Of a stretch of DNA of 64,000 nucleotides, positions 43,695-63,731 are shown piece by piece. The DNA is taken from positions 4,231,899-4,295,898 of the forward strand of contig JAGGNK010011003.1 of assembly GCA_017590115.1 (NCBI GenBank). The letters run 5' to 3'. Made by a program: the position numbers and the translations under genes. The notes beneath the pieces were generated by a model. That model saw only the letters and a list, made by a program, of their open reading frames with translations. It was not told the DNA's origin and did no database searches. This DNA is from Montifringilla adamsi (Eukaryota > Chordata > Aves > Passeriformes > Passeridae). Numbering within the stretch: position 1 is the first letter of the stretch; each line of letters starts with the position of its first letter.

Positions 43695-44365
43695 GTGAGA
43701 AAACCCCTCAAAACCTGACAAAGCCCTCGAATCCTGGCAAGCCAACCCCTCAAAGCCTGGCACAAACCCACCCCTCAAAATCTGGCAAACCAAGCCCTCA
43801 AATCCTGGTAAAAACCCCACTAAATGTGACACAAGCCCACCCCTCAAAACCTGGCAAACCAAGCCCTCAAATCCTGGTACAGACCCCTCAAAACCTGACA
43901 CAAGCCCACCCCTCAAAACCTGGCAAACCGAGCCCTCAAATCCTGGTAAAAACCCCACTCAACTTGACACAAACCCACCCCTCAAAACCTGGCAAAAACC
44001 CACCCCTCAAAACCTGGCAAACCAAGCCCTTAAATCCTGGTGCAAACCCCACTAAACCTAACACAAACCCACCCCTCAAAACCTGGCAAACCAAGCCTTC
44101 AAATTCTAGTACAAACCCCTCTAAACTTGGCACAAACCAATCCTTCAAAGTCTGGCAAACCAAGTCCTAAAATTATAGTACAAGCCCCTCTAAACGTGGC
44201 ACAAACCCACCCCTCAAAGCCCAGAAAACCAAGCCCTCAAATCCTGGTACAAACCCCTCTCATCCTAACACAACCCACCCCTCAAAACCTGGCAAACCAA
44301 GCCCTAAAATTATAGTACAAGCCCCTCTAAACCTGGCACAAACCCACCCCTCAAAACTCGGCTTA
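43695..44365 (+). repeat. ~45-bp minisatellite
   Basis: Many imperfect copies built from CCTCAAAACCTGGCAAACC, AAGCCCTCAAATCCTGGTA and ACACAAACCCACCC modules. The order and number of modules vary. It creates open frames on both strands that are not genes. Confidence 0.93.
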
Positions 44366-45534: not shown

Positions 45535-46291
45535 CTACCAGGGCCTCCAGAGAGGGCTGCTGTCCTTTGGAGACACTTGTTTCAGGGCACCGGCATTCCC
45601 AGGGGAGAAGGAGACCTCTGGAGCAGCTGACTGGCTCTTCTGGAAGTGGCTTAAAAGTTTGGTCTGTGTTTCAGTTCGGACTTTGTGGAGAGAGAGGAAA
45701 TAGAAAGCTTCTTGCAAACACCTGGAATAGCCCTCTCTGAAGTCAAACTGGGAGCTTTTGTGGAAGGATCCTGCAGCTGGAGAAGGGAAGAAAAGAGGGA
45801 GAGGGAAGGAAGAATAGTTTAGAACAGCTGTCCATGGCTCGAGATTCATACAACAGTCACAGATTTGCAGTAAAACGGAGACTGAAAGAAAACTCAATAC
45901 TTACTCTTCATCTGCAGCTGGCTCTGCTGCTTCAGGTAGCTGACAGCCACTTCCAGGATGTCGGCTTTCTCCAGCTTGGAGTTGGGCTGGTGCCTCTGGA
46001 ACTCCTTCTCCAGGAGCAGTTTCAGCTGCTCGATGCTGCTGTTAATCCGGTCCCGGCGCATTTTCTCCACCACCGGCTTCCTCAGCTGTAAAAAGCAAAG
46101 GAAAAGGAACCTGTTATTAAAGGATGCTCTCCCTGACACTCCGCAGGGCTGTTTGTCACCCACCACTGCTCCTCAACAGAGCGAGGCAAGGTCTCAGCTG
46201 GTATAAACTCTGCTGTGCCTGCACTTACTTTGTTTTTCTCCTTTGCTGTCAGCAGGTTGTCGGGCTCCAAGAAAACAGCGCTGGGAGCCAT
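45535..46291 (-). CDS. HES5-like bHLH-WRPW repressor, inverted paralogue
   Basis: Exons on the minus strand: 46291-46229, 46085-45905, 45776-45535. All have GT-AG borders; total 486 nt, 161 residues. Exon 1 gives MAPSAVFLEPDNLLTAKEKN. Exon 2 is the bHLH with the HES proline-containing basic region (RKPVVEKMRRDRINSS) and helix-loop-helix. Exon 3 has an Orange-like region (SRCLQEAFYFLSLHKV) that is rather diverged, and ends in WRPW, the Groucho/TLE-recruiting tetrapeptide. It should be a nuclear repressor driven by Notch. It is in the opposite orientation to the HES5 copy at 57.7 kb. The acceptor of exon 3 could also be six bases later (45770). Several hes5 paralogues are known in chicken; which one this is cannot be decided here. 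Confidence 0.9.
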
Positions 46292-46363
46292 CCGTCCTGA
46301 GCAGAGAGGTCTGGGGGTGGAATCCAGGAGAAGCGTGTTGCTGGAAGCTGCCTGCAGCCGACA

Positions 46364-46436
46364 TTTATACCATCCGAGCTGGGCGAGAGCGTGTGGGTCT
46401 GCGGCTCGGTGGTGTTTCCCACACTCTCCAGCCAAT
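46364..46436 (-). promoter_or_regulatory. Notch-responsive promoter of the minus HES5 paralogue
   Basis: Reading on the minus strand: a CCAAT-box complement (ATTGGCT, 46432-46436 core), then an RBPJ/CSL site TGTGGGAA (46416-46423) extended as TGTGGGAAACACCA, then TATAAA (46364-46369), about 73 bases before the ATG. The same order and near-identical words are found upstream of the plus gene. Confidence 0.8.
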
Positions 46437-46449
46437 CCTGGCCACGGGC

Positions 46450-49400
46450 AGCACAATGGGAGAAGCAGCTATTCCTGCATGCTCCAGTGGCACTGAATAG
46501 CCGGCGGATAATGACCTTCTCCCAGAGGAGCAGGTGGGGAGTGCGCGCTCCCTGGAAGGCTGGCATCAGAGTTACGTGTCAGGAGCTGGGAAAGAGCTGC
46601 CCTTCCACGGGAAAGGCTGCTGACTAATGCCCAGGATCAATAGCATTCCGGGGGCAGCCCGGGGTTCACAGGCGGGAGGAAGGAGGAGGAGGAGGAGGAG
46701 GAGGAGGTCAGCTGCCCATGGCGGGAAGGATGCTCCAGGAGCGCGCCCAGGCACACGCTGCACAGGAGCAGGGCACACGCCAGCAGCCCCTGGCTGTGAA
46801 AAATTACTGGCTTTTCCCAAATATTAAAATGAATGTTGTATGTGTTATGTTAGAATGTGTTATATGTGTTATGTGAAAGTGTGTGGTTTGTGATTGGCTT
46901 TTCGCAAATATTAAAATTAACGTTATACGTTAGAATGTGTTATATGTGTTATGTTAAAATGTGTATTTTATGATTGGCTCTTCGCAAATATTAAAATTAA
47001 CGTTATATGTTAGAATGTGTTATATGTGTTATGTCAAAATGAGTATTTTATGATTGGCTTTTCCCAAATATTAAAATGAATGTTGTATGTGTTATGTTAG
47101 AATATGTTATATGTGTTATGTTAAAATGTGTGGTTTATGATTGGCTTTTCCCAAATATTAAAATTAATGTTATATGTTAGAATGTGTTATATGTGTTATG
47201 TTAAAATGAGTATTTTATGATAGGCTTTTCACAAATATTAAAATCAATGTTGTGTGTGTTATGTTAGAATGTGTTATATGTGTTAGGTTAAAATGTGTGG
47301 TTTATGATTGGCTTTTCACAAATATTAAAATCAATGTTGTGTGTGTTATGTTAGAATGTGTTATATGTGTTATGTTAAAATGAGTATTTTATGGTTGGGT
47401 TTTGGCCAATATTAAAATTAGTGTTATATGTAGAATGTGTTATATGTGTTATGTTAAAATGTGTGTTTTATGACTGGCTTTTCCAAAATATTAAAATTAA
47501 TATTATATAATGTGTTAAATATTATATGTGTTATGTTAGAATGTGTTATGTTAAAATGCCTATTTTGTGATTGGCTTTTTGCAAATATTAAAATGAATAT
47601 TATATAATGGGTTATATGTGTTATGTTAAAATGCGTGTTTTATGATTGGCTTTTGGCAAATATTAAAATGAATATTATATGTGCTATGTTAGAATGTGTT
47701 ATATGTGTTCTGTTATACATTAGAGGGAAATCTTTGGTATCAGGTCTATCAGGGAGTCTGTACCTCTCAAGTACCTCAGCCAATGGGGAAGGAGAGAAGG
47801 GAAATGTGGCTGGGAAATTGGGATAAAAAGGAGGCTGGGTCCTCCAAAAATTTGAGAGACCCCAGGGGAATGCTCCATGGCCTCTCCTTTTATTGGAATC
47901 AAGTAAAAGGACTCCTCTGTCTCCTTTTTGGACATAAACCTCTGATGTTTGTGGACTAATATTCCTAACATTCCCTTCCCTCAGAACCTTACGCAGCCCT
48001 TTAGAAAACTCTCATTAGCGCTTTATGTTTCTGTTTCCAGACACCTGCAAGACAAACACTTGTGGAGAAGGGTCTTGGGATTGTTTCAGAATCAGTTCAG
48101 TATCACATGCTGCCTCTTACTTCATCCCCAAAACACATTTCACTCTATTTTCATTTGGTCTATAAACAAAGGAAAACTGGGTGCAGCAGAGATTTATATC
48201 CTCATAAACGTATCAGAAACCAAATTCCTGAATCCTCATTATTCTCCCCTGTGCCAGTTGCTGTGTTTGATGCACAGCCTCTGCTCAGGAGGTGCCTGAG
48301 CTGACAGTCTGATAAAAACACAGCCAGGGCTTCCTGCTGGAAAACCTGAACCAGACCTGCCAGCAATTTATCCACCAAGGAATGTCAGGGCTTATGTTTG
48401 TGGAGCTCTTACTCTAGTGAGTAAATACCAGTTGTATTCACATTAATACATGTGTAGGTGTGTTCACCTTTACATTAACGTGTGTGTGTGGTCACACAGG
48501 ACCTTTAATGTGCCCACACACACCCAGGGCACAGGGACACGTTTCTCCCTCACTCTGCAGCTCATTATTGGTGCAGCAGGTAAGGCTCCAATGACCTCTT
48601 CCAGGCTCTGCTTTTCCATCCCTATTGTGCTGCCCTGAATGGGCTCCCTTCTCTCGGCACAGAGCAGCAGCTGTTGAGCTCCGGCTCTTTTATGTCAGGT
48701 TGTGGGAAAGCTTTTGTGACACCGTTTCACATGTTCTCCTCAAAGCCTGTGGATTATCTCTGAGCCCATGTAACGCCACCTCTGAAACCAATCTGTGCAT
48801 CCCTCTCGGGGACGTTCCCTGAAACAGAAACTCCGGAGCTGGGACTTGTTTCTCCAGCTCGTTAATTGAGCACAGGAAGAAGAAAAGTGCCAGTCCTGTG
48901 ATGGGCAGGGAAGTTTTGCTAGAGACAATTGCTGCTTCCCTCTTGCTGCTTTCCTCTGATTCTCCACTCAACACCCAGATAAAAACTGCATTAATTCCAT
49001 GGGAACAGTCATGTCAACCTCACCCTCCTTGCTCTTGGCACAGTCAAGGGGTCAGTGCCCAGAATTTCCTCTCCACCAGCATCCAAACTGACCCAGAGCC
49101 TGCACCTGAGGAGTCTGAATGCAAAATAATCATCTGTGGCATTCCACTTTGGCTGGAGAGGCTGGAAGCCTCTGTGGGTGTGATAAGAATTACAATATTC
49201 CATGTATTATTGGGAGGTGAACATAGCAAAATCTCCCCTGGGTGGGAAACCCATTGAGGTTCCTACATCCTTGCTCTGTGTCACACACAAATTTTAAGGA
49301 ATTGGAAATACAAACATGTATTTAAGACAGCTTTTTCTTTTCTCTTTGGTTGCACAAGATCTGAGGGGAAAAAATTAGTCAATTACTGACCTAGTTGGAG

Positions 49401-49780
49401 GAGTTACTCAAATTAGATGCTCAGTAACCAAAAACAGATACTCTGCTTTGGCTGGAAATCCTAAAAAAAAAAAAAAAAAAAAAAAAAAAAGTGGTAACAA
49501 AAATTTCTCCCTATTATAAAGTTTGCAGACTCTGTGGACTTTACACTAAGAAGAATGAATTTGGAATTACACATCTCCTACTCCAAACACACACACTGCT
49601 GGACAGAAAGCTCATTGGGATCCCAAAATACTGGATCTGGATGTTTGAAACAGGTCATCAACAACAGCCTTGCCCCAGAATCCCTGCCAGATGTTAGCCC
49701 TTTAGAAAACCTTGAGGATGCTGCTGCTTTCCCAGGTCTGGAGAGATGCTCCCTGCTCCCACTGCTTCCCTCCCAGCCCA
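46450..49780. other. Spacer between the minus HES5 gene and element A
   Basis: No coding exon seen. It holds a GGA-rich run at 46677-46706, a large AT-rich VNTR, and a lone RBPJ-type TGTGGGAAAG at 48701-48710 near a CATGTAACG word. A poly(A) run of about 28 bases lies at 49464-49491. Confidence 0.5.
46805..47715 (+). repeat. AT-rich VNTR, 80-88-bp unit, about 11 copies
   Basis: Each unit starts with a word like TGATTGGCTTTTCGCAAAT, continues TATTAAAATTAATG, then several TTAGAATGTG and TTATATGTGTTATG segments. Unit spacing alternates between about 80 and 88 bases, so there is sub-repeat structure. Confidence 0.93.
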
Positions 49781-49784
49781 TGCT

Positions 49785-49920
49785 GCCCAGATGGCCTTTT
49801 GGGAGCAGGGTTTCCCTCTGAACACAAAGCAGAGCCAAGCACCGTTGCTAATGTGGTTTGTAGTCGGGCACACTTCCTTTGTGACAGGAGGGAATGTGGT
49901 TAAGGAATGGTGTGGGACAC
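49785..49920 (-). promoter_or_regulatory. HES5-locus noncoding element, copy A (inverted)
   Basis: On the minus strand it reads: TGTCCCACACC (RBPJ-like on the complement, 49911-49918), ACAAAGGAAGTGTGCC, then CACATTAGCAACGGTGCTTG, then GGCCATCTGG with a CATCTG E-box (49789-49794). The order and spacing match copies B, C and D. Function as an enhancer is inferred from conservation and motif content. Confidence 0.7.
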
Positions 49921-50614
49921 TCCGGAGCAGGCAAACTTCCCCAGCCCTGTGTTAGTAAGGCATTCAGAAAGGGGAGCAGGGGCAGGGATGAACTGGGGAC
50001 AGGAAAGACAGCAAAATGTGGGATTTTTAGCCAGTGCTGAGTCCTGCAGAGCATCCTGAGGTGGAAAATAAAATGGGTCCAATCCCAAAGGCCTTACTGG
50101 GATCCACACTGAAGCCAACAGAGAATTTGGAGTCCAAGATTTGCTCTGCTGATGTCGCACCTCTGGAGCTGTTTCCTGATCTCTGTAAACTTTAAATACA
50201 AATTACCTCCACACCTACCAGAGAATGTATCAAGACCTAATCAAAATTTTAATTTTCTCCTGCCAAATATCAAAACAATAATCAGATCTGTTGTTTCCCA
50301 TTTCTTTTCTCCACCTGGTATTGCTGGTATAAAACTTGACTGAGTTTTCTCAGCTCTCATAGCTCCACATGGACCATACAAAACTCTCACAATACCCTCA
50401 TGGTCCACAGGAGCTGCTGCGTTTTCTGGGACATATTAAACAGATTGGGGATTTAAAGAGGCAAACAGGGGATGTGGCTCAGAATTCTCAGTGCAAGCTG
50501 ACCCACCTCTGCCACCTCCAGTGGGACAATTGGCTGTGGCCTGACTGGTGGATGAGCAAGACTCTGCTCTGCAGCTCCTTTCCGTGTCATTTCCTCCCAG
50601 CCCTTCCCTGCTTT

Positions 50615-50695
50615 TCCTCCTAACCCTTCCCTACATTTCCTCCTAACCCTTCCCTACATTTCCTCCTAACCCTTCCCTACATTTCCTCCCTGTCC
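50615..50695 (+). repeat. Short tandem repeat, ~24-bp unit
   Basis: Three to four copies of CTAACCCTTCCCTACATTTC with a CTC linker. Confidence 0.9.
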
Positions 50696-50929
50696 TTCCC
50701 TATCCTGCTGCTTGGCTGGTGCAATTTCTGTCTGCCTTCACAGCTTCCTTCCTTTTTTTTTTTTTTTTTTTTCCTTTTTCCTCGTGGTTTACTTTCCCTC
50801 CGTGCAGGTTTTATAATCTGGTTTTTCAATCTGTCACTCCTTTCCCCCCCTGCCTGTCACAGGCAGATGTGGTTTGAGGACAGGGGTGTCTCAGAGCCCC
50901 ACAGCCCTGGTGAGTGTGGAGTTCCCTCC

Positions 50930-51072
50930 AGTTTCCCACACCGCTCTCCCATTCAGGGCATTCAGGCTCAGGATAAAGGAAGTGTGCCATGCTACAAGCT
51001 GAATTAGAAATGGTGTTTGACTTCCCTTTGTACTGCACAGAAACCTTGCTCTGGGCAGACCATCTGCATAGC
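50930..51072 (+). promoter_or_regulatory. HES5-locus noncoding element, copy B
   Basis: TTCCCACA (RBPJ complement, 50933-50940), then GGGCATTCAGG, ATAAAGGAAGTGTGCC, GAATTAGAAATGGTGTTTG, then ACCATCTG E-box at 51061-51066. The GGGCATTCAG word is shared with copy D. Confidence 0.7.
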
Positions 51073-51284
51073 CCTCACCGTGGAGAAAACCATTGATCAA
51101 GGCCTGTCAGCCCAGCTGGGGGAACTTGGGAAAGTAATTCCTTGTGCCACTTCAGTTCTTTAGGGCTTAACATCTGGCTGGAGGGGGAGGCGACAGTTGA
51201 TGGTTTAACAGTCTTGCTTCCTTTCAAGTTTGGGATGCTGTTTTGATCCCAGATAAGCCTTTCTGAAATCCTGATTTTAATAAC

Positions 51285-51470
51285 ATGGAAAGCATCCAGA
51301 AGAGTAGGAATAATGCACTGGCTTTGCATTTTCAAAGTGCTTTACAAATACCAGCTAATGAATTCTCAGCGACCTCCTCCGTGGGTGAGGATGTATTATT
51401 AGCAGTGGTTTACAAAGGCGGGAAAACGAGGCTGAGAGGAGAAAACCAAGATTTCAAGATTTCAAACAGC
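51285..51470 (+). mobile_element. MIR-like relic near element B
   Basis: AAGTGCTTTACAAATACCAG, then a GGTGAGGATGTATTATTAGC word, then GGGAAAACGAGGCTGAGAGG match the order of the MIR core (cell-count region, then the GAAACTGAGGC region). It is old. Its place next to a conserved element makes exaptation possible. Confidence 0.5.
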
Positions 51471-51479
51471 CTACAGGTC

Positions 51480-54060
51480 GCAGGCTTCTACGGCCAAGAG
51501 GTTGTTTGAGACATCTGGTTTGCAAAAATGCTCAGCACCCACTTTTGTTTTAATTAGCTTTGGCATCTCTGAATGGGGCCAGCTCCTTTGCTTGTGGGAG
51601 GACTTGGATTTCCAGGCTGGACCACACTCACAGCCATGCACCACCCAGATAAGCAGATACCAAAGTTCTCCTTTGCCCTCAAGTGCAGCAGTGGAGCTTT
51701 AAAATGTCATTTAGTATAATTTTTCTAAGCCCATGAAACAGCTGGAAAGGAAGATAAACTCAAATCCCCAATCAGGAAATACTTATTGTTGTGTTCAACA
51801 GAAAATAACTCCATCTCTCCAGAAAGTAAACTAAGTTTTCATTTGCTTATTCATACCCCTGCAGACCTTCAGCTGTGCTTAGTCCCTGGGCAAGTCTGTC
51901 TGTCAGCACCAAGGAATTCTGCTCAGCTGCCTCCCAGCAGGTATGGTTATCCTGGGATTGGAGCTCCTCAGGGAGGGGCTGCAGTGTGCCCTGGATGACC
52001 TGGACTCCTGAGGGAATACGAGGAAATCTGACAACGTGCCTTGCCCTGTGGATGGAGATGAGGGCACCCAGCCCTGCCCATGACCTGGCAGCTCTTGTGT
52101 GTGCCCCTCTGCCAGTCCTTTGCCTGGCTCAGGGCCAGGTTACCCACCTCCTGAAAAACCCTTCTTGCTTTTATCAGACACCCTCTCTTCATTCTGCTGC
52201 CAGCTGAGCGTGGCAAAGATGTCTCCAAACCCCACCTGCCTGTCAGGGCAGGACCTCACAGGAGCCCTGGGACACTTTCCCCAGACGTGGGGAAAAAAAA
52301 ACATGTCCATTGTGCTCTGCAGCTGGTGACTGATGGCTGCCAAGCACAAGAAAATGGGTTCCAGTGGGAGCTTACACCCCAAAACTCACCTCAGAACTCG
52401 GGCTGAGCTCAAGGGAAAAGGAGCAATCCACTGGGCCATAAGGGAGAGTCAGCTTCAGGTTATAGACTTGTTCCCAAGGCAGGGACAATCAAAGGAGGCT
52501 CAGGGGACACCAGGAAGCCTGTGGCTCTTATCTCCCACCACTACCCTCGCTGCCTCTGAGTGATTAAATATCTGCCCCATGCAGATGGGATTAATTGCTG
52601 ATCCTGTCAGGATCCTGCCCTCCTGCCTGGCACAGACACACCATTCCCCTCTCATTAATGACAGTAAGTGGCTGCTGGGGCCAGACTTCAGGAGCCACAT
52701 TCCCTATTCCCAACCTGCTCTGCTGAAATATCCTCTCTGCAGGATACCTGCTCCCTGCCAAAAGCCTGGCAGCACTGTTTGCTGAGTCTTGTGACTTTTA
52801 TCAGGAGACTCATAATACTTAGGGCCTTCAGCAGGACTTCATGGCCAAGCCTCATAATTCTATAAAGAGAGAAAACTAATTCTATCAATCCAAAGTCCTA
52901 ATGCTCAGTTAAAAAAAAAAAAAAAAAATCAAAATGCTTTTATTTTTATGGGAAACATCAAATTGTTTTTGTTAAACCTCTGTGATGCTCAGTCAATTTC
53001 TTGGTTCCTCAGAGCCCAAATTTTGGTATTTGAAAGGTTGGCAGCACTGTCAGACCCACAGAGGTGTGGAAAAGCTGGGTGCCACCACCTCCCAAAAAAC
53101 CCACCCAAAACCAAACAATGATGGAAGTGCATGAACCCAGCAGCTCCTGTTTGCTGCCCCCATTGCACTGTCACTGACAGGCTGCTCCTTTCCTTGGCCA
53201 GGCCAGGGGAGGTGACTGATGGGGAGTTCCAGAGGACTTTCAGGGAGCCCCCAGTGAACTCAGCACCATCCAGGATGGCTGGGAGAAACCTCAAACCCAG
53301 CTGGCAGCACGTGGGAGATCCCTCAGCCCCATCCCAGAGATGGGGAGCAGCAGCATTTCCAAACTCCCTCTTAATTCAGCCCTGAGAGCCCCGGGAAGGA
53401 GCAGGAGGACAGGATCCATCCTGTCCTCCCGCTCCTTCCCAGAGCTGTTTTCTCTGCGGGTTTGGAAGGAGGAGGGTGGTAAACACAGAACATGGTGGCT
53501 CCCGCCAAGCCTGCTCCCAGGGCAATGTGTTCCTTTGAGACATAATTGATTCCTGCCATCAGGCACCAGCCTGCTCTCCCCCAGGGTCAGCGCTTTCCCA
53601 CATCCAACCCCATTATCCCACAGACCATGCCTTTTGTACAACACACTCCAGCTATTCATGTGCAAAGCAGCTGTAATCCCCAGACCTTTCAGAGTCAATA
53701 TACCAGGAAATAATAAATCCCTCTTGTGCACTCTTGAATATGCCGAGAGGTGACTTGTGGGAATTTCAGCTGGGCAGAAAAATAATAAATTCTCCTTAAT
53801 TTTTAATTATTTGTGATACTCGCTGTAGAAGGACTATGTCATTGGGGCATGGCTACTTGGGGGTCACCACACAAGCAGCTATAGAAATTGCTTTTGCCTC
53901 TAACAACCCTAAAAATGCAGATCAAGTTGTCTCACATGTTTCTTAATGATCAAAGTCCACTTTCCTTCACTCATGCACCGGGGAATGGCAGTATATTAAA
54001 CATCCTGGATCTGAAGAAAAACTAATTAAAAAAGGTTAAATCTGTGAAGAATGTACTTTA
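51480..54060. other. Noncoding spacer
   Basis: I recognise no gene, mobile element or strong motif cluster here. Open frames on both strands look random, and an A run sits at 52910-52928. Confidence 0.5.
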
Positions 54061-54063
54061 CAG

Positions 54064-54256
54064 TATTAAGACCCCTTTTTGAGTGGGTTCTGATGTCTCA
54101 AGGAGGCAAGATAATGCCATGTTAATGACATTTAATGGAATATTTCATACAACAGTTCTAATAACAACATAACCTTTTCCCCTGGAAGAGGCAGATTTCC
54201 CTCGACTCCCACTCCACTGGTTCACATGCAGAGTTCCCTGTGGGAACAGAAGCCAG
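54064..54256 (+). repeat. Duplicated RBPJ-bearing block, copy 1
   Basis: This 193-base block matches 56854-57053 with one substitution and one 7-base indel. It contains TGTGGGAA, the high-affinity RBPJ word, at 54239-54246 and an AACAGTTCTAATAACAAC stretch. It lies about 3.4 kb upstream of the plus HES5 gene. Confidence 0.92.
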
Positions 54257-54381
54257 TCCTGAATAACAAGTTTTTATATGGTTATTTCTTTATATATTGC
54301 CTTCCAGCCAGACCATTTTTATACTACTTTCTGTGTGAAATGTCATGTCACTGAAAGACCCTGAGTAGAGCATGATAGGCA

Positions 54382-54601
54382 GGATTAGGGTTAGGGCTGG
54401 GGTTAAGGGCAGGGGCAGGGTTAGGGCTGGGAGAAGGGATCTTCATCTGAGACACCAAAGGAAGCAGGGGCAGGGTTAGGGGCAGGGTTAGGGCTGGGAG
54501 AAGGGATCTTCATCTGAGACACCAAAGGAAGCAGAGGCAGGGTTAGGGGCAGAGTCAGGGCTGGGAGAAGGGATCTTCATCTGAGACACCAAAGGAAGCA
54601 G
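54382..54601 (+). repeat. ~68-bp tandem repeat with TTAGGG words, three copies
   Basis: The unit carries GGGATCTTCATCTGAGACAC and AAAGGAAGCAG with GGGTTAGGG-type words between. Only two adjacent TTAGGG units occur at the start. Confidence 0.9.
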
Positions 54602-55475
54602 TGGCTCCTCAATTAAGAGCTGTCAGAGGGTCATTAGGGGTCACCTCAAACAGGTAGTTCCTCGTCTTGTCACACGTTGGCCAAGAACCTCCAGGGAGGA
54701 AGTTGTGGGAATATGAGGGTGATGAAGGGATGTGCTAACACTGCAGGGATTTGTGGTGCTGAAATCTGTGAATCTTAACCTTTAGATCAGGTCCACCCAG
54801 CAGTGACATACAGACCCAGTAGTTTACCAGGGTTCATCATTTTGAACAGCACTCAAAGATAACATTTCCCACCCAGGTGTGTCTGCCTGGGACACTGGCA
54901 GTGTTATTGCTGCCACCAGCAATTCCCCATTCAGCTGAGATCAGAGCTGGCTTCATCCTGACCTCCCCCCATTTCCCTGGCTGTAAAAGCTTTCCCAGCA
55001 CTGCTCCCAACACACAGGGAGAAGAGGCTCTCTCAGCACCCCCAGCACTGCTGCTCCTCCACTCTGCTCCCTGAGGTGCTCCCAGGTGATGCCAGAAAAG
55101 CACAGGGGCCAGGTGAGCCCCATCCCTGCCTCTTACCACAGGCACAGGTCAGCTCCCAGCTCCCACAGGGCTCTGTGGAAGAGCTCAGCACCACTCTCCC
55201 ATTTCCCAGAACAGCAAACTGAGGCACAGTAGCACAAACCAGAGCCCCAGGACAGCCCAAGCTGCAGCTCAGCTCAGCACTCCTGCAGCCACCCCTGCAT
55301 GAACCGCTGTCCCTGCCCTTGTCACCCCTTTCTCCCCTGGAGAAGCCCCTGGATGGTGAAACGTGCCCATTTCAGCCTTCCTGGGTGAAAAAGCCAAGAG
55401 TTCATGGTGCCCCAACAGAAGCACAGCTCCACAAAGGGGTTATTAGCGCCAGGCTGTGTGGGTTTGGATTTCTCT

Positions 55476-55622
55476 GCCTTTCCCATACTCTTCCCCCATT
55501 GATAACATTTCTTGCAGGGACAATAGAAGTGTGCCTTGCAACTACTCCCGACATTAGTGACGGTGCTTGAGCCTGAATGATTTAAAGGGAAGGAATCCAA
55601 CTCCCAAAAGACCATCTGGCTA
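55476..55622 (+). promoter_or_regulatory. HES5-locus noncoding element, copy C
   Basis: TTCCCATA (weaker RBPJ-like, 55480-55487), then ACAATAGAAGTGTGCC, CGACATTAGTGACGGTGCTT, then GACCATCTGG at about 55611-55619. It is the best match to copy A in the GACGGTGCTT core although it is in the other orientation. It lies about 2 kb upstream of the plus HES5 gene. Confidence 0.72.
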
Positions 55623-56329
55623 TCAGTTCTAATACAGCAATAAAGGTCAGGGCTTCTCAGGAGTTGGGAAAAAGATGGTTTTTGACACTGAAGGGTCTTC
55701 AACCAGCTTGTTCCATGCCTACCTGTCTGCCAGCACGGCTCCCCTGCTAGGAAAGGGATAACCCAGGACAGCAGCTCCAGGAGGAAGGCCAGCCAGAGAG
55801 CACAGGAAAACAGGCAACACCTCATTAAAGCTGGCAGAAGCTGGGGCTTGGTCTCTGAGCTGTGTCTTATTTTGTATCATAATCCTTTGACTGCTTCAAA
55901 GTGCTCATGAGATGTCTTGTCTCCTGGCTTTCCCACAACGCAGGGAATAAAGGGCTCCAAGGACAACATCTGCCCTTCACAAAGAGCTGGGTCCATTCAG
56001 GCTGCTACAATGAGTCCCACGTCACTGCCCATAGCAGTGACACCTCCTTCCTTCCTGTCAACTGCCCATTACCCCTTCGCTTCATTGCAGCATTTCCAAG
56101 CAAGAAATTCTTTGGTTTTCTTACCTCACTGCACACTTCCGTCCTCCCTTGCCATGCCCGGATGCTCAGAGGAGGAGCACACCTCTGCCTGGGGCACCCT
56201 GAGCTGGACCCACACATGGCAGGATGCAGCACAGCTTTCCCCAGGTAGCTTATGTTAGGTTATTTTTGGTGCTGTCTCAAGGGCTGTACCCAAGCAGATA
56301 TTTTACTCACAACGCAAGATCAGAGCTGA

Positions 56330-56500
56330 CCTCCAGTGCCCTCACAGCTTCATTCTTTATCTCGCCCTTATCACAAAATAAAGGGTTGCTTAATTCATCC
56401 TGACGTTTCCGTGCAGATACAAGCAAGCAGCACATTTTCCGTATAAAAAAATGGAGTGGGGATGACATGCTGAAGGTTACACAGCGAGGTGTCTGAGATC
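56330..56500 (+). mobile_element. MIR-like relic near element C
   Basis: CATTTTCCGTATAAAAAAAT, then GGGGATGACATGCTGAAGG, then TTACACAGCGAGGTGTC resemble the MIR core's 3' half. Divergence is high, so this is tentative. Confidence 0.35.
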
Positions 56501-56853
56501 TGACATTCAGAACACTCACCAGGGCCAGGCTGCAGCGAGGCCAGGCCAGAACCAGGCACACCTGAAACCTCAGCAAGAAGCAGAACCAACCTTACTGAGG
56601 GCCAAAGATGGGCCTCGGCTGCTAAATCCCATTCATGGCCCACCCCTGGTTCCCTGAGACTTCCCAGGACTGTGGGTTGAGCCTCGTGCTGTCCTTTAGC
56701 CCATCTTAACCATCATTCCTGAAAAGGTCTGTGTGGAAGAGATAGATGAGAAAAAGAGCTACAGGGGTGACTCTGCATGGCCCAGCTCTGCTGGGAGGTG
56801 TGGGCTGTCCTTGGTGGGAACAGTGGTGCATCAGGCTCACAGACTCTGGTGTG

Positions 56854-57053
56854 TATTAAGACCCCTTTTTGAGTGGGTTCTGGTGTCTCAAGGAGGCAAG
56901 ATAATGCCATGTTAATGACATTTAATGGAATATTTCATACAACAGTTCTAATAACAACATAACCTTTTCCCCTGGAAGAGGCAGATTTCCCTCGACTCCC
57001 ACTCCACTGGTTCACATGCAGAGTTATGATTCCCCTGTGGGAACAGAAGCCAG
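56854..57053 (+). repeat. Duplicated RBPJ-bearing block, copy 2
   Basis: This 200-base block is the partner of 54064-54256, with TGTGGGAA at 57036-57043. It lies about 600 bases upstream of the plus HES5 start codon, so it is a proximal enhancer candidate. The intact 7-base segment ATGATTC distinguishes it. Confidence 0.92.
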
Positions 57054-57501
57054 AAGAGAGAAAGTGGGGTTACAATTCTCTAGTTATTCTCGCTGTTGAT
57101 CCACCAACCATTTAGAAACGTCCTGCGAAGAAACCTGTGGTCACTCTTCGGGTCACCCATTAAAGTGCAACGACTGGATGGACACACACACACACAGAGC
57201 TCCCCCAGGCTCTGGGAAGTGCAGAGATGTCCCTGGGGCTGTTGATTTCAACTCTAGCAGGGCTGCCCTCCCTTTCCCACCTTCCCCCAAAAGTGTGCCT
57301 CCTCCATGCCCGGGCACATGCGAGGCTCAGGAATGCCATTGATCCCAGCCCAACCAGCTGGAGGCTCGGTGCTTTCCCAGCTCCCCACGCCCCGCACACT
57401 CCACCAGCAGCGTGGGCAGAAGGTTATTCTCCCCGGGGCATTGGCAATCAATGTACCATGCACTAATGGATGCTTCCTCTATTGTCCCTCTGCGGGCCTG
57501 G

Positions 57502-57575
57502 ATTGGCTGCGGGGCTGTGGGAAACACCAGCCATCCCAACACTCACGTATCTGCCCCTGCTCCCCGGGTATAAAT
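57502..57575 (+). promoter_or_regulatory. HES5: Notch-responsive HES5 promoter
   Basis: ATTGGCT (CCAAT complement, 57502-57506 core), then RBPJ site TGTGGGAA (57516-57523) in the context TGTGGGAAACACCA, then TATAAAT (57569-57575). The start of transcription should be near 57600 and the ATG is at 57661. Paired CCAAT and CSL sites near a TATA box are typical of Hes1/Hes5 promoters. Confidence 0.85.
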
Positions 57576-57660
57576 AGAGGCACTTGGGAGCTGCCAAAGC
57601 ATCTCCTCACACTCGGCACAGCAGCTGCCTGGGGTCTGTGCCCAGGGCTCAGTGCTTAGG

Positions 57661-58657
57661 ATGGCTCCCAGCAATGCTCTCATGATCCACATGGAGGAGA
57701 AGCTGCTGCCAAAGGAAAAGAATAAAGTAAGTAGAGCCCCAGAGGGGACTGAAAGGCTGGCCTGCCCCTAGCAAATAAATATTACGTGGGAGAAGAGGGG
57801 GAAGTGGTCTGGGGGAAAACAAATATGTTAAAGAGAGATAAGAGGGATTTTATAGATTTTTAAAAATTAAAATGAGTGGGGAATGGGTAGGCAGCATCAC
57901 ACAGCTATCCTGACAAAAAAAAAAAAAAAAGGGTCTTTGAAGATGGGTGTATCAGGGCATCAGAGGGGAAATTGCGTCAGGTCTCACCAAATCCCTGATG
58001 ATCTGCTCCCTCTCTCACAGCTGAGGAAGCCGGTGGTGGAGAAAATGCGCCGGGACCGGATTAACAGCAGCATCGAGCAGCTGAAACTGCTCCTGGAGAA
58101 GGAGTTCCAGAGGCACCAGCCCAACTCCAAGCTGGAGAAAGCCGACATCCTGGAAGTGGCTGTCAGCTACCTGAAGCAGCAGAGCCAGCTGCAGGACCAA
58201 AAAAGTGAGTGCAGAGCAGGTATTGCACACCTGGACCTGCTCCCAGGGCTGTGCCCTCCCAGACACCCCAAGGAGAGCAGGGGCTGGAGCACCCCAGCCC
58301 CAGGCACATGAAAGTCACCGCACAAATCATCACTGCCCCATGTTTTGGTCATGATTTTAACCCTCTGCATTTGCTTTTCTTTCTCTTTCAGCATTCGTCC
58401 ACAAGAACCCAGAGCAGGACTTTAACAGCGGGTACCTGCGGTGCCTCAAGGAAGCAATGCACTTTCTGTCCTACTACGAGCCCAAGAAGGAGACCCAGGT
58501 CCAGCTGATCAAGCACTTCTGCAAGGCTCAGCTGGGTGCAGATGCCTCGTACTCTGCAGCTCTGCGTGGCTCCCCCCTGTCTCCCTGTGTTTTTCCCAGA
58601 AAACAGCCTGCCCAGAAGAGCGTGGCTGCTGCTCCCACCATCTGGAGACCCTGGTAG
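57661..58657 (+). CDS. HES5: HES5, bHLH-WRPW transcriptional repressor
   Basis: Exons: 57661-57726, 58021-58204, 58392-58657. Total 516 nt, 171 residues; mammalian HES5 has 166. Exon 1 gives MAPSNALMIHMEEKLLPKEK. Exon 2 is the bHLH domain, with basic region RKPVVEKMRRDRIN and helices through YLKQQSQLQ. Exon 3 carries a well-kept Orange domain (GYLRCLKEAMHFLSYYEP) and the terminal WRPW motif that binds Groucho/TLE. HES5 is a direct Notch target that represses proneural genes to keep neural progenitors undifferentiated. The orientation relative to MMEL1 is the same as in human, so this is the positional orthologue. Better Orange-domain conservation than in the minus copy also favours it as the ancestral gene. 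Confidence 0.95.
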
Positions 58658-59431
58658 ACCTGCTGAACTTTATTCCCACGTTTTGCTCCAAAAACTAGAG
58701 GGACCTGTGGTTTGTTAGTTCCTCTTTGAAGTAGGAAACATTGCTTTCCAAAGGTGGGAGGAGGGGGCGGTTATTGTTTTTCTGTCACCAGAAATGAGGG
58801 TCGCTGGGTGGTTTCCCTTCATAGTGAAGGACTCCGGGTATATCTTGCAGCAAATTTGTTGCTTTTATTGGTGGCTCCTGGCCAAAGACAGGACCAAGTT
58901 CTGTGGTGATTTAGAGAGCAAATGACCTTTGGTTTCCATCACAGGCTGCTGAGCCTGTGGCTGTCAGTTGAAATCTTTCTGCTGACTGCCTGGGTCATAG
59001 GTTCAAGTGCTCCATTGTCTCCAGATAATGTATTGACCTTCCTCAAGAAGGAGCCCTTTGGAGAATGTATTTTGTATCATAAAGAGAGGATTCAGCCTTT
59101 CCCTTTGGAGTGAAAGATGTTATTAAGAAATGCTGATTCCTCTGAAGCTCCTCTGCTATTTTTAGTATCCTTCTTACAGAAAGTTGTGATGAGAGAGCTC
59201 TAGGGACAATTCCCTTCAAGTCACTTTGTGCTGCTCTCATGTGAGGGATAATTGGTGCCTTTTGTAAAGGAAATACCTCTGCTATACCTTAAGGAAAAGG
59301 GGGAGGAAGGGAGGCAATAAGTACTTTATAATCATCCACTGAGCATGCTAAGGAGCTTAAAAAGCTTTTATAAAGTTGTGATGTATTCATCCTGTGTGAT
59401 GTTCAGCTTGCATGTCTTCACTGTACAGTAC

Positions 59432-59437
59432 AATAAA
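59432..59437 (+). terminator. HES5: HES5 poly(A) signal
   Basis: AATAAA follows the stop by about 775 bases and is preceded by a TGTACAGTAC context. No earlier hexamer is evident. Confidence 0.7.
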
Positions 59438-59439
59438 AA

Positions 59440-61360
59440 TGGTTTTAGTCATTAATGCTTTGCTTTGGAATGATTAAAAGGGTGCCTGCAGCCTCTCCTG
59501 TGGTGGGGAAGCATCAGGAGGTGTCAGTTCTGAGCCCTTCACTCCAATACATGAATTACATCTGTGAAATCCCTTTGGCAGAGCTGGGTTTCAGATCCTG
59601 TAAGGAAGCAACCTCTGGAAAAATGAGCAAAAATCAAAATGGAAATGAATCTGAAGTGAGGTGCTGAGAAGTGGCAACCTTTCAGATTTAACAGCGACCT
59701 ATTCAGCCTCCCAACAAATCACTCATTCCACAGCCACTTCATTTCCCCCACTAATTTTTCCACCAAGCTGAGATCAGCCTTGTGCTTTCTGCCTGTTTGC
59801 AAGGGAGTGTTGTGCAAATTTCCCAATAACTTCCAAAGAGTTTGGCACCTGCCTCAGCTTAGGGATCTTTAAAACTACCTGCAATGGGGTGAACTAATTT
59901 TTGGTGTCTTAATTTTATGACACAAATTCTGCTAGGCTCCCTTTACTGAAGTGAAATTAGCCCACATATGGCTAAAGGATAATTAGATAAGAGAGGCTGA
60001 GAAAGCATTTCCTCTCCTAAATTATTTCCTTTTATTTTACCTCCCCTTCAAAACAAATCTGCACAAATAATCATTTCACAAAGCTATTCTCTAACCACAG
60101 TAATTCACTGGTTTGGGTTTATGGCAGGGGACACTCTCCTTCTTCCAGAGATACAGGAACAGCACAAAACACATTTGGTCAACAATCCAACTTTCCTCAC
60201 ACTCCCTGGGAGAGGTGCCCTTGAAAATCTGCATTTCAAGCACTCAGGGTTTGCTCCCAAACAAAAGGAAACACTGAATACCTGATCTTGTCAAAAGCAC
60301 AGAGCAACCTGAGATCTGCTCAGCTGACAGATCAAACTGCATCCAGCACTGAACCTGCCTAGTGCTCCTTGGGTTTGCGGTGAAATCCTCTGTTAACCAC
60401 ACAGAAAATCCCCAAAAGCCAAACAAGGATGTGCTGCTCTGCCTTATTTTGGGCCGTGGATCATTTTGGTTTTATTTGTGCACAGACTGGTTGGGTGCTC
60501 TTCTCTGCCAGTGCAGTGCAAGGGGGGTTTGGTACAGGTCTCTACCAGTGCTCCAAATTTATTCTTCCTAATGAACTGCTAAATAATTCACAAGAGATAT
60601 TTTTGGGCTTTATGGTTGCTTAGCAAGCTTGAAGAACTCACTTCAACCTCGCTGTGCTCAACTTGTCCTTGCCAATTAGCACAGGCTTCTGAATCCCAGC
60701 AAAACTCCAGCTGTTGTCCGTGCCTGTGGGGTTTTAAATCAAGCCTAATTAGGGCGGTTTGGGGGAGTTCAGGCTCAGCTGGAGTGCCATGTGCCCCAAA
60801 GCCCAGCCCAGCCTGATGTGCAGCGCTGGGAGCACAGCCACACGTGGCAAGGAGCGGGCTGCTGCTCTTCTGGGAATGGGATTCCTCCCAAGGAACCAGG
60901 CTCGGGGGTCACAGCTGGCAGCACCTCTGCAGGTTGTGTAAAAAAAAAATGAGTGTAAGGGAGAGAAACAGTGAATTCCTCCTCCCTGGGCTCTGGGAAG
61001 GGACCAAACCCCACGGGAAAAGCTGCTTTTTGTGGTGCAAGTACTCCCTTTCTGCTTTCCACCAAGCCCAGCCTTGCCCCTCTGGGCTTTAATTAACCAA
61101 TTAGCCCAGAGCTAAAAGCCAGACCTCCAGCCTGCCCGGCCCTGCGCAGCAAAGGTTATGTTTACAATTTATTAATTATTATCACTTCTCATAATTGAAC
61201 TCAAAGCTTCTTAGGGCTCCTCCGGCCCCTGGGGTGAGTCTCCCCTGCTCCCAACACATTCCCACCCTTAGGGAAGATGTTGTTGATTATGCTGATCCCA
61301 CAGCTCAGGAATACTCTCCTGACAAAGCCGCTATTAACCTCAGAGTGTGGGCCTGAGTTT
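59440..61360. other. Noncoding DNA downstream of HES5
   Basis: No gene recognised. AT-rich homeodomain-like words such as CTAATTAGGG (60746) and TTTAATTAACCAATTAGC (61088) stand out in 60.7-61.2 kb, just before element D, and may belong to a wider conserved block. Confidence 0.5.
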
Positions 61361-61365
61361 CTCGG

Positions 61366-61508
61366 AGTTTCCCACACTTTCTTCCCTATTTAGGGCATTC
61401 AGAAGCCCACAAAGGAAGCGTGCCTCACAACAGCCCACATTAGTGACGCTTTTTGGCTCCGCATTGTGACGAGCAGCAATTCCTGTCCCGATGGACCATC
61501 TGGAGAGC
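61366..61508 (+). promoter_or_regulatory. HES5-locus noncoding element, copy D
   Basis: TTCCCACA (RBPJ complement, 61369-61376), GGGCATTCAG, ACAAAGGAAGCGTGCC, CACATTAGTGACGC, then GACCATCTGG with the E-box at 61497-61502. It lies about 2.8 kb downstream of the HES5 stop. It has both the GGGCATTCAG word of B and the CACATTAG core of A. Confidence 0.72.
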
Positions 61509-61509
61509 T

Positions 61510-62980
61510 ATTTTCCCAAGGAGCACATTGATCGATCAGTATTATTCGAAGCCCCTTTTAAAACTTGGGAACGTTATGCTCTTTGACACTAAATAGGTGT
61601 CTCAAGAGGGGTTGTCAGAAAGATTTTAAACCATTTAAGGAAGGCACAAGGAAGGGAAAAAACATTAAAAATCGTAATTATTTCTTTAAAAACGCCATCA
61701 ATGGCACCTGGGAGACAGGCTGGCATGAATGTAGGAAATGGCCTGAAATAAGAACGCTCTAAAATTAGTGCAAGCCATCAAGTTGTGTGCTGGAAGCACA
61801 GCCACAGAGGTACAGGGCCCTGCTTTTTAAACCTGTGTGACACAGACAAGGAAATTCTGGGCTTCCACCCTCCTCCAGACCTGTTGCTCCATTGCAGCAC
61901 ACTGAGCTCCCCTCCATGGAAAATGATGGGCTAAGAAAGCTGCCAATTGGTGTTACGAGCAGTAGCAGCTTTTGTGCAAACTGCGTGTGGAGTAAATGAC
62001 ACCTGGGCTGAAACCACCACCCGTAAACCAGGAGCAGAAAGGCTCAGCAGCAATTCTTCAGGGAGGAGATCCTCCAGCTGCTCTGGTTTATGGATTGTCA
62101 TGGACACCAGCCTAAAATGACAGTCTTGGGGTGGCTGGATCCTTTCCTGGATCCCTGGGGCTGTTTCTCAGCTCACAGCAATCCCCCCACAGCTCAGGGT
62201 CAGCGGGGAGCAGCTCCAGTTGATGGTGATGAAGATGGGAAAAGCTCCTGCCTGGCATTGCTGGGCTCTGAGGACAGACAGGGACAGCCCCTGGAAGGCT
62301 GTGATGATGGGAACAGCGCCTTCATGATGCAGCTGAGGGTTTGGTGGGATTTACAGAGGAGCAGCCTCTGCCCACAGCATCTCCAGATCTCACACCCCGC
62401 TCCAAAAAAGGGAATTATTGCGTCCTGTTGTTCAGTCAGCTCCATGTTTGGCAGTTTTGGGGATTTGTCTCTTTTAATCCTTCATTCCCAAACCAGGAAA
62501 AATTGTGTCTCTGAGCCTCAGACAGTCCAATTTTCTGGCTCTGCAGCAACAGTCCAAGGCACAAACTCCTCCCAGGGACAAGGATTTGGATCACAAACAC
62601 GTTTCAGGGGGACAGACTGCTGCACCAACAGTGGGATTTTTAAAAAAGACCAAACTGAGCAAACTAATTACAGAGTTTTAACAAGGACTAAATGGACTTC
62701 CTGCAGCAGAGGATGATTTTTCTTTACTGAAGTCCTTGCAGGGAGGGCATTCTGCACTCCATATATACAGCAATATACTGTAAGGACAGCCCAAGTCTGG
62801 ACAATTTCTTATTCACAACCACCAAGACAATTTATTATTCACAACCACCAGTTAGGAAATGCTGTTGCCATTAAATTTTCAGGTCTTAATAACCAAACCA
62901 GCCAGGGGGAATATTTGCTTCTCTCACCCCACAGCAGCACACAGAGGGTGCAGATGAGGCAGGCACGGGGGAGTGGAACG
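61510..62980. other. Noncoding spacer
   Basis: I see no gene or repeat of note. A 208-codon open frame at 62090-62716 (+) has no recognisable domain and no start or splice context that supports it. Confidence 0.45.
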
Positions 62981-63103: not shown

Positions 63104-63731
63104 TTAATGGTTGGTGACTAGCCATTGTCCCCCTGGTGCTTGCCAGGGAGTGACACCAGACCCCGCAGGTAGCAGGGCAGGGGAGTGGCATCAGAGCTAG
63201 TATGCAGATGAGAATGCATTTCACCAACTTTGTAACTTTCCAGGGAAAAAAAAAACCTAAAATCAATGAGCCAACATAGAATGTCTAAAGTGATGTCTAA
63301 AGATGAGGAACTTAATCCAGCACCTGCTAGGATCCTTTTTACTTCCCACCCTAACCTAAAAAGATGTTAACTAGAGAGAGGACCTGAAATGTTAGACCAA
63401 AAAAGCGGAATCTCCTAATCTTTAATGGTTGGTGACTAGCCATTGTCCCCCTGGTGCTTGCCAGGGAGTGACACCAGACCCCGCAGGTAGCAGGGCAGGG
63501 GAGTGGCATCAGAGCTAGTATGCAGATGAGAATGCATTTCACCAATTTTGTAACTTTCCAGGAAAAAAAAACCCTAAAATCAATGAGCCAACATAGAATA
63601 GACCTAAGTGATGTCTAAAGATGAACTAAATCCAGTACCTGCTAGGATCCTTTTTACTTCCCACCCTAACCTAAAAAGATGTTAACTAGAGAGAGGACCT
63701 GAAATGTTAGACCAAAAAAGCGTAATCTCCT
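63104..63731 (+). repeat. 318-bp tandem duplication inside the LTR-like element
   Basis: The block beginning TTAATGGTTGGTGACTAGCC and ending near GGAATCTCCTAATC starts at 63104 and again at 63422. The copies differ by a handful of substitutions and small deletions, for example loss of GGAACT near 63625. Confidence 0.93.

What the first reader, a model, noticed from the sequence alone, without database searches (positions are those of the whole stretch)
49785..61508. Four diverged copies of a ~140-bp RBPJ/E-box element spread through a two-gene HES5 cluster
Elements A (49785-49920, minus), B (50930-51072), C (55476-55622) and D (61366-61508) share four blocks in the same order at near-constant spacing: an RBPJ-like TTCCCACA, GGAAGTGTGCC, a CATTAGTGACGGTGCTT-type core and an ACCATCTGG E-box. 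The RBPJ-to-E-box distance is about 120-128 bases in all four. Sequence between blocks has diverged, so the blocks appear to be under constraint. RBPJ sites paired with proneural E-boxes are a known logic for E(spl)/Hes genes, so this may be an enhancer that duplicated with the HES5 genes and was retained as several shadow enhancers. I do not know of a description of it.
Basis: partly seen in the sequence, partly recalled or inferred. Interest (0 to 1): 0.88.

Follow-up and report, generated by a model that had tools for sequence, protein, structure and literature searches.

The report
Four copies of Hes5(e1) enhancer
A bird's HES5 gene cluster carries four diverged copies of a DNA switch, one of which matches an enhancer already tested in chick and mouse spinal cord, and some of the copies appear to sit beside HES5 genes that have since decayed.

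Summary
Profiles built from three copies find the fourth in the window at E = 1.9e-25 (A), 2.8e-18 (B), 2.1e-19 (C) and 3.9e-24 (D). A gapped pattern taken from the copies matches four places in the 1.03 Gb genome, all at this locus, so it is not a dispersed repeat. "No description" is wrong for copy C: it matches Hes5(e1), an Olig2/Ngn2-bound element overlapping RBPJ binding, published for chick, mouse and human (PMC5811045). The passages I read there name one such element; I found no description of A, B or D. All four keep the E-box; a consensus RBPJ site is in B, C (relaxed) and D, not A. Past the window end lie a decayed fifth copy E and a HES5 relic; a promoter-like relic lies at 53.7 kb. 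Best reading: a unit of e1 enhancer, promoter and HES5 gene duplicated several times, two genes decayed, and four enhancers stayed under constraint, probably as redundant Notch plus bHLH enhancers. Activity, and conservation in other birds, were not testable here.

The parts
49765..49935 (-). Copy A of the e1-type element; RBPJ-like GTCCCACA (non-consensus), ACAAAGGAAGTGTGCC, CATTAG core, GCCATCTGG E-box; 3.5 kb upstream of the gene 1 promoter RBPJ site
   Evidence: leave-one-out nhmmer E=1.9e-25; motifs
50915..51090 (+). Copy B; strict RBPJ site, ATAAAGGAAGTGTGCC, AATTAG core, ACCATCTGC E-box; 2.8 kb upstream of the promoter-like relic at 53.7 kb
   Evidence: leave-one-out nhmmer E=2.8e-18; motifs
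55460..55640 (+). Copy C, candidate orthologue of Hes5(e1); RBPJ-like TTCCCATA, ACAATAGAAGTGTGCC, CATTAGTGACGGTGCTT, ACCATCTGG E-box; 2.0 kb upstream of the gene 2 promoter RBPJ site
   Evidence: leave-one-out nhmmer E=2.1e-19; matches to published mouse and chick Hes5(e1) oligonucleotides
61350..61525 (+). Copy D; strict RBPJ site, ACAAAGGAAGCGTGCC, CATTAGTGACG core, ACCATCTGG E-box; 5.1 kb upstream of the relic gene's promoter beyond the window
   Evidence: leave-one-out nhmmer E=3.9e-24; motifs
45535..46291 (-). HES5 gene 1 coding span, 3 exons, ends WRPW; HLH and Hairy_orange domains
   Evidence: Pfam
46350..46580 (-). HES5 gene 1 promoter with an RBPJ site (46418) and a TATA-like box, homologous to the gene 2 promoter
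   Evidence: leave-one-out profile of promoter plus exon 1, E=6e-32; BLAST 63.5%
57661..58657 (+). HES5 gene 2 coding span, 3 exons, ends WRPW; HLH domain (no Hairy_orange match at E 0.001)
   Evidence: Pfam
57385..57580 (+). HES5 gene 2 promoter with an RBPJ site (57521) and a TATA-like box
   Evidence: leave-one-out profile of promoter plus exon 1, E=6.5e-34
53638..53773 (+). Promoter-like relic with an RBPJ site, no recognisable HES5 exons nearby; possible trace of a lost HES5 gene
   Evidence: promoter profile E=4.3e-5, 0.0042 with exon 1 included, leave-one-out 5.7e-5, 0.0019, 0.028; scores above all 126 background CCCAYA sites

Best explanation
A-D are paralogous copies of one enhancer, the Hes5(e1) element. 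An ancestral unit (e1 element, then a promoter 2-3.5 kb downstream, then a HES5 gene, all in one direction) was duplicated, once in inverted orientation, giving A with gene 1, B with a promoter whose gene is gone, C with gene 2, and E (with D nearby) with a third gene that is now a relic. Each intact copy most likely works as Hes5(e1) does: Notch/RBPJ input together with proneural bHLH/E-protein activation at the E-box, and Olig2 repression through the same E-box in motor neuron progenitors, so that HES5 is on in Notch-active progenitors and off where Olig2 is high. Shown here: homology, clustered conserved blocks, uniqueness in this genome at the pattern level, orientation and spacing, a relic gene and a decayed fifth copy. 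Shown by others for Hes5(e1): E-box binding and reporter activity. Inferred: the history, the activity of A, B and D, RBPJ use at each site, which promoters they serve, and redundancy.
For: Leave-one-out recovery of each copy. Strict pattern: all 4 genome matches are A-D, reversed control 0; loose pattern: 4 of 5 are A-D, control 0. Copy C against published oligonucleotides: mouse EMSA probe score 44 (A 34, D 24, B 20; null max 25); chick forward primer 32 (D 24, A and B 18; null max 22), sharing the CCCATAC variant; mouse ChIP reverse primer 24 (A 20, B and D 15; null max 22). Hes5(e1) lies in the middle of the chick HES5 cluster, coincides with Olig2 and RBPJ binding, and its E-box is needed for full activity and for exclusion from Olig2 cells. 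A, B, C and E face the same way as a promoter 2.0-3.5 kb downstream. Core columns invariant in the other three copies are kept at 79-89% in A-D but at 46-58% in E beside the relic gene.
Against: A has no YRTGDGAD RBPJ match and C only a relaxed one. C exceeds the null maximum for 3 of 7 published oligonucleotides only; D and B do not exceed it for the EMSA probe, and the mouse forward primer fits D (24, equal to the null max) better than C (16). The tree of the four copies is weakly resolved (C with D, 67% bootstrap), so the order of duplications is unknown. D is 5.1 kb from its promoter and does not fit the unit as neatly. No HES5 exon trace was found beside the 53.7 kb relic. No functional data and no other bird genome was available.
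Confidence: 0.74

Rival explanations
1. Only C is a working enhancer; A, B and D are leftovers of segmental duplication that are slowly decaying and do nothing.
For: A lacks the RBPJ consensus; a decayed copy E exists, so decay happens.
Against: B and D keep strict RBPJ words and all four keep the E-box and spacing, while the upstream and downstream flanks alone give no significant leave-one-out match; invariant columns cluster in blocks; E shows what loss of constraint looks like.
Confidence: 0.13
2. The copies are regulatory but their shared blocks serve other factors than RBPJ and proneural bHLH proteins, for example a homeodomain or SOX-type core, with Notch input coming only from the promoters.
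For: GAAGYGTGCC and ATTAG are shared by all four copies, and an ACAAWRG word is in A, C and D; the RBPJ word varies between copies, the E-box core does not.
Against: Hes5(e1) coincides with RBPJ binding and depends on its E-box; B and D keep strict RBPJ words.
Confidence: 0.1
3. A dispersed repeat family member inserted four times near HES5.
For: Four copies in 12 kb.
Against: No other genome-wide match to the strict pattern and one unrelated match to the loose one; BLAST with C finds only itself (insensitive: it also misses A, B and D); C matches mouse and chick Hes5(e1).
Confidence: 0.02

Closest known systems
Hes5(e1) of chick, mouse and human (Sagner et al. 2018, PMC5811045)
   Same: Position in the HES5 cluster, RBPJ-type word in the primers, the CTCCCAAAAGACCATCTGGCT block in C, E-box, about 200 bp.
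   Different: The sections and passages read name one such element; here there are four copies plus a decayed fifth, in two orientations.
Multi-gene HES5 (hes5.1) cluster next to PANK4 (Kuretani et al. 2021, PMC8320183)
   Same: HES5 genes beside PANK4, three in chicken.
   Different: That paper compares genes; here two intact genes, one relic and a promoter-like relic, with enhancers. The word 'enhancer' occurs 3 times in its text, 'regulatory' once (12 of 30 places shown).
Drosophila E(spl) complex Su(H) plus proneural enhancers (recalled)
   Same: Notch effector genes in a cluster, with Su(H)/RBPJ and E-box input.
   Different: Independent lineage; no sequence relation tested here.

Membership tests
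Hes5(e1) enhancer | Lies within or upstream of the HES5 gene(s) | tested here: met
   A-C between the two HES5 genes, D after gene 2 and before the relic gene
Hes5(e1) enhancer | Sequence match to published chick/mouse element (oligonucleotides only), copy C | tested here: met
   3 of 7 oligonucleotides above the null maximum: EMSA probe 44 vs 25, chick forward primer 32 vs 22, mouse ChIP reverse primer 24 vs 22; the other 4 are below their 95% null points for C
Hes5(e1) enhancer | Direct sequence match to published element, copies A, B, D | tested here: inconclusive
   EMSA probe A 34, D 24, B 20 vs null max 25; homology to C is shown by profiles instead
Hes5(e1) enhancer | CATCTG E-box | tested here: met
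   4 of 4 copies
Hes5(e1) enhancer | RBPJ-type site (recalled consensus YRTGDGAD) | tested here: inconclusive
   3 of 4 copies (B, C, D); not met in A. So A is filed as a paralogue of the element, not as a Notch-responsive member
Hes5(e1) enhancer | Olig2/Ngn2/RBPJ binding in neural progenitors | not testable with these tools
   needs ChIP; reported for mouse Hes5(e1)
Hes5(e1) enhancer | Reporter activity in intermediate spinal cord, excluded from Olig2 cells | not testable with these tools
   reported for chick and mouse Hes5(e1)
Dispersed repeat | Many copies elsewhere in the genome | tested here: not met
   strict pattern: 4 matches, 4 at the locus; loose pattern: 5 matches, 4 at the locus

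The most novel reading that the evidence does not exclude
Enhancers outlived their genes: copies B and D belonged to HES5 genes that are now lost or relic, yet stayed intact and were taken over by the surviving HES5 genes, while E decayed. In addition the enhancers and the HES5 promoters may descend from, or share, one module (an RBPJ site followed about 34-38 bp later by ACAA-type and GAAG words), so the distal enhancers could be promoter-derived.
Probability: 0.33. Interest if true: 0.68.

Novelty: new member of a known kind. Interest (0 to 1): 0.5.

Why it matters
It turns a single known Notch-linked enhancer into a natural series of diverged copies in one locus, with a decaying copy as an internal control. 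That makes it possible to read which bases of Hes5(e1) matter, and to test directly whether an enhancer can persist after its own gene has died.

Tried and rejected
Dispersed repeat: rejected by genome-wide patterns. Both patterns were derived from the four copies, so finding these four is by construction and only the absence of others is informative. A sensitive profile search of the genome was not possible: the sequence model R1 is not accepted for it. BLAST of C over the genome found only itself and is too insensitive to find A, B or D. Rfam: 0 matches at gathering thresholds in the window. Extension of the element: upstream and downstream parts alone are not significant, although two pairwise BLAST alignments run longer.

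Promoter-enhancer relation: over window plus flank the enhancer profile's best hit outside A-D is the relic gene's promoter (E=2.6e-4), ahead of copy E (0.0015) and the gene 1 promoter (0.087). It scores promoter p3 at 15.9 bits, above 2983 windows with a planted RBPJ word (max 12.1), p1 at 7.8 (99% point 6.0), p2 at 2.2 (below the 95% point 3.4), and the 53.7 kb relic not at all; with the RBPJ word masked p3 keeps 6.8 (unplanted max 2.5) and p1 and p2 give no hit. The promoter profile scores D 5.1 and B 3.4 against a planted-null 95% point of 3.8 (max 14.7), with no hit for A, C or E. Anchored profile comparison: observed 10.8, 600 column shuffles max 8.7; without p3 12.8, none of 300 shuffles as high. 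Among 126 background CCCAYA sites (10 of 136 set aside as belonging to A-D, the promoters or the relic), 0, 0 and 2 score as high as p3, p2 and p1 on the enhancer profile, and 2, 8, 2 and 2 as high as A, B, C and D on the promoter profile; the relic is unremarkable on the enhancer profile (60 of 126 as high); one background site, 66308, lies at the edge of p3. Taken as suggestive only.

HES5 exon trace near the 53.7 kb relic: none. Tree of copies: unresolved. An earlier count of retained columns in E was unfair to E, whose fetched stretch ends early; the core-only count is used. A viral-contig scan for a 17-base core gave 5 matches, taken as chance and not followed.

Papers: Sagner 2018: outline, sections 13, 14, 30, 31, 33, 34 (part 1 of 2) and passages; figures are not held, so its Fig 7A could show more copies. 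Kuretani 2021, PMC3396596 and PMC12212003: passages only. PMC3793872 and PMC6597611 came up and PMC3663255; seen as listings only. Li 2012 (PMC3734558) is not held. Searches that bear on a prior description.
Full report
The window comes from a 1.03 Gb assembly of 846 contigs and is G000:C528:4231899-4295898. It is read here as a bird from genome size, gene content and the HES5-PANK4 order reported for chicken; that is inference, as no name was given. M13 peptidase exons lie to the left (MMEL1 by recalled synteny; Pfam), two HES5 genes at 45535-46291 (minus) and 57661-58657 (plus), both ending in WRPW, and a reading frame that looks like the PANK4 start (name recalled) at about 69.4 kb in extended coordinates. 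Of the 83 HLH matches that the genome search lists, two lie on this contig, at the two HES5 genes.

The four elements are real and homologous. Each is recovered by a profile of the other three with E between 2.8e-18 and 1.9e-25; the best other hit has E=0.033. Identity is 54-61% and the invariant columns are clustered into blocks more than chance. For comparison, chick and mouse Hes5(e1) are reported as 53% identical, so the duplications look old; this is inference. The order is RBPJ-type word, then (40-44 bp on) GAAGYGTGCC, then ATTAG, then CCATCTG. Across the genome the strict gapped pattern matches only these four places; without the RBPJ part one unrelated place appears as well.

Copy C is very probably the published Hes5(e1). 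That element is about 200 bp, conserved between chick, mouse and human, lies in the middle of the chick HES5 cluster, coincides with Olig2 and RBPJ binding in mouse progenitors, and carries one E-box bound by Olig2, E12 and Ngn2. It drives reporters in the intermediate spinal cord; E-box mutation lowers activity and lets expression into the Olig2 domain. The mouse probe's first 21 bases are identical to copy C, and C is the best match among the copies to the chick forward primer and the mouse ChIP reverse primer. The mouse forward primer fits D better, and for it and three more oligonucleotides C stays below the 95% null point: 3 of 7 support C. The sections and passages I read do not mention A, B or D; the figures are not held.

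The motif picture is uneven. Strict YGTGGGAA (recalled) is in B and D, the relaxed consensus also in C, neither in A; CATCTG is in all four; ACAAWRG is in A, C and D, with ATAAAGG in B. SOX-, homeodomain- and RBPJ-type labels are recalled, not from a motif library.

Outside the window, 40 kb of flank holds a HES5 relic: a bHLH exon trace (BLAST to the gene 2 exon, 78.7% over 94 columns, E=4e-14; protein-level match only E=0.04) without an intact frame, and a promoter 68% identical to that of gene 2. No exon 3 trace was found there. At 64005-64125 lies a shortened copy E (profile E=0.0015 for its best part) with the GAAGCGTGCC and CATCTG words but no RBPJ match and no ATTAG core. Core columns invariant in three of A-D are kept at 79-89% by the fourth and at 46-58% by E. 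At 53.7 kb a promoter-like stretch with an RBPJ site matches the HES5 promoter profile (E=4.3e-5; leave-one-out 5.7e-5, 0.0019 and 0.028).

Taken together, enhancer and promoter pairs run in the same direction: A to gene 1, 3.5 kb; B to the 53.7 kb relic, 2.8 kb; C to gene 2, 2.0 kb; E to the relic gene, 2.4 kb (from an approximate point, as E has no RBPJ word); D is 5.1 kb from that promoter. This fits repeated duplication of an enhancer-promoter-gene unit followed by gene loss. If right, B and D are enhancers whose own gene is gone or relic.

Promoters and enhancers may also be related to each other, facing in opposite directions: in both an RBPJ word is followed by ACAA-type and GAAG words at similar spacing (alignment). 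The tests are suggestive but post hoc, and not every copy or promoter passes (details in Tried and rejected).

Noticed in passing
45912-46088 and 58018-58194: The bHLH exons of the two HES5 genes are identical over 177 of 177 bases while introns differ, exon 3 is about 38% identical in protein and the promoter plus exon 1 stretch 63.5% in DNA: gene conversion, or an assembly artefact. A genome search for further copies did not complete.
   Followed up: partly
54063-54256 and 56853-57053: A 200-bp direct duplicate, 96% identical, one copy between B and C, the other between C and gene 2; both carry a CCTGTGGGAACAG word.
   Followed up: no
63104-63416 and 63422-63731: Tandem duplicate of about 310 bp, 95.9% identical.
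   Followed up: no
46803-47715: AT-rich minisatellite array upstream of HES5 gene 1.
   Followed up: no
43703-44362: Tandem array with a 69-bp unit; self-alignments 77-88% identical.
   Followed up: no
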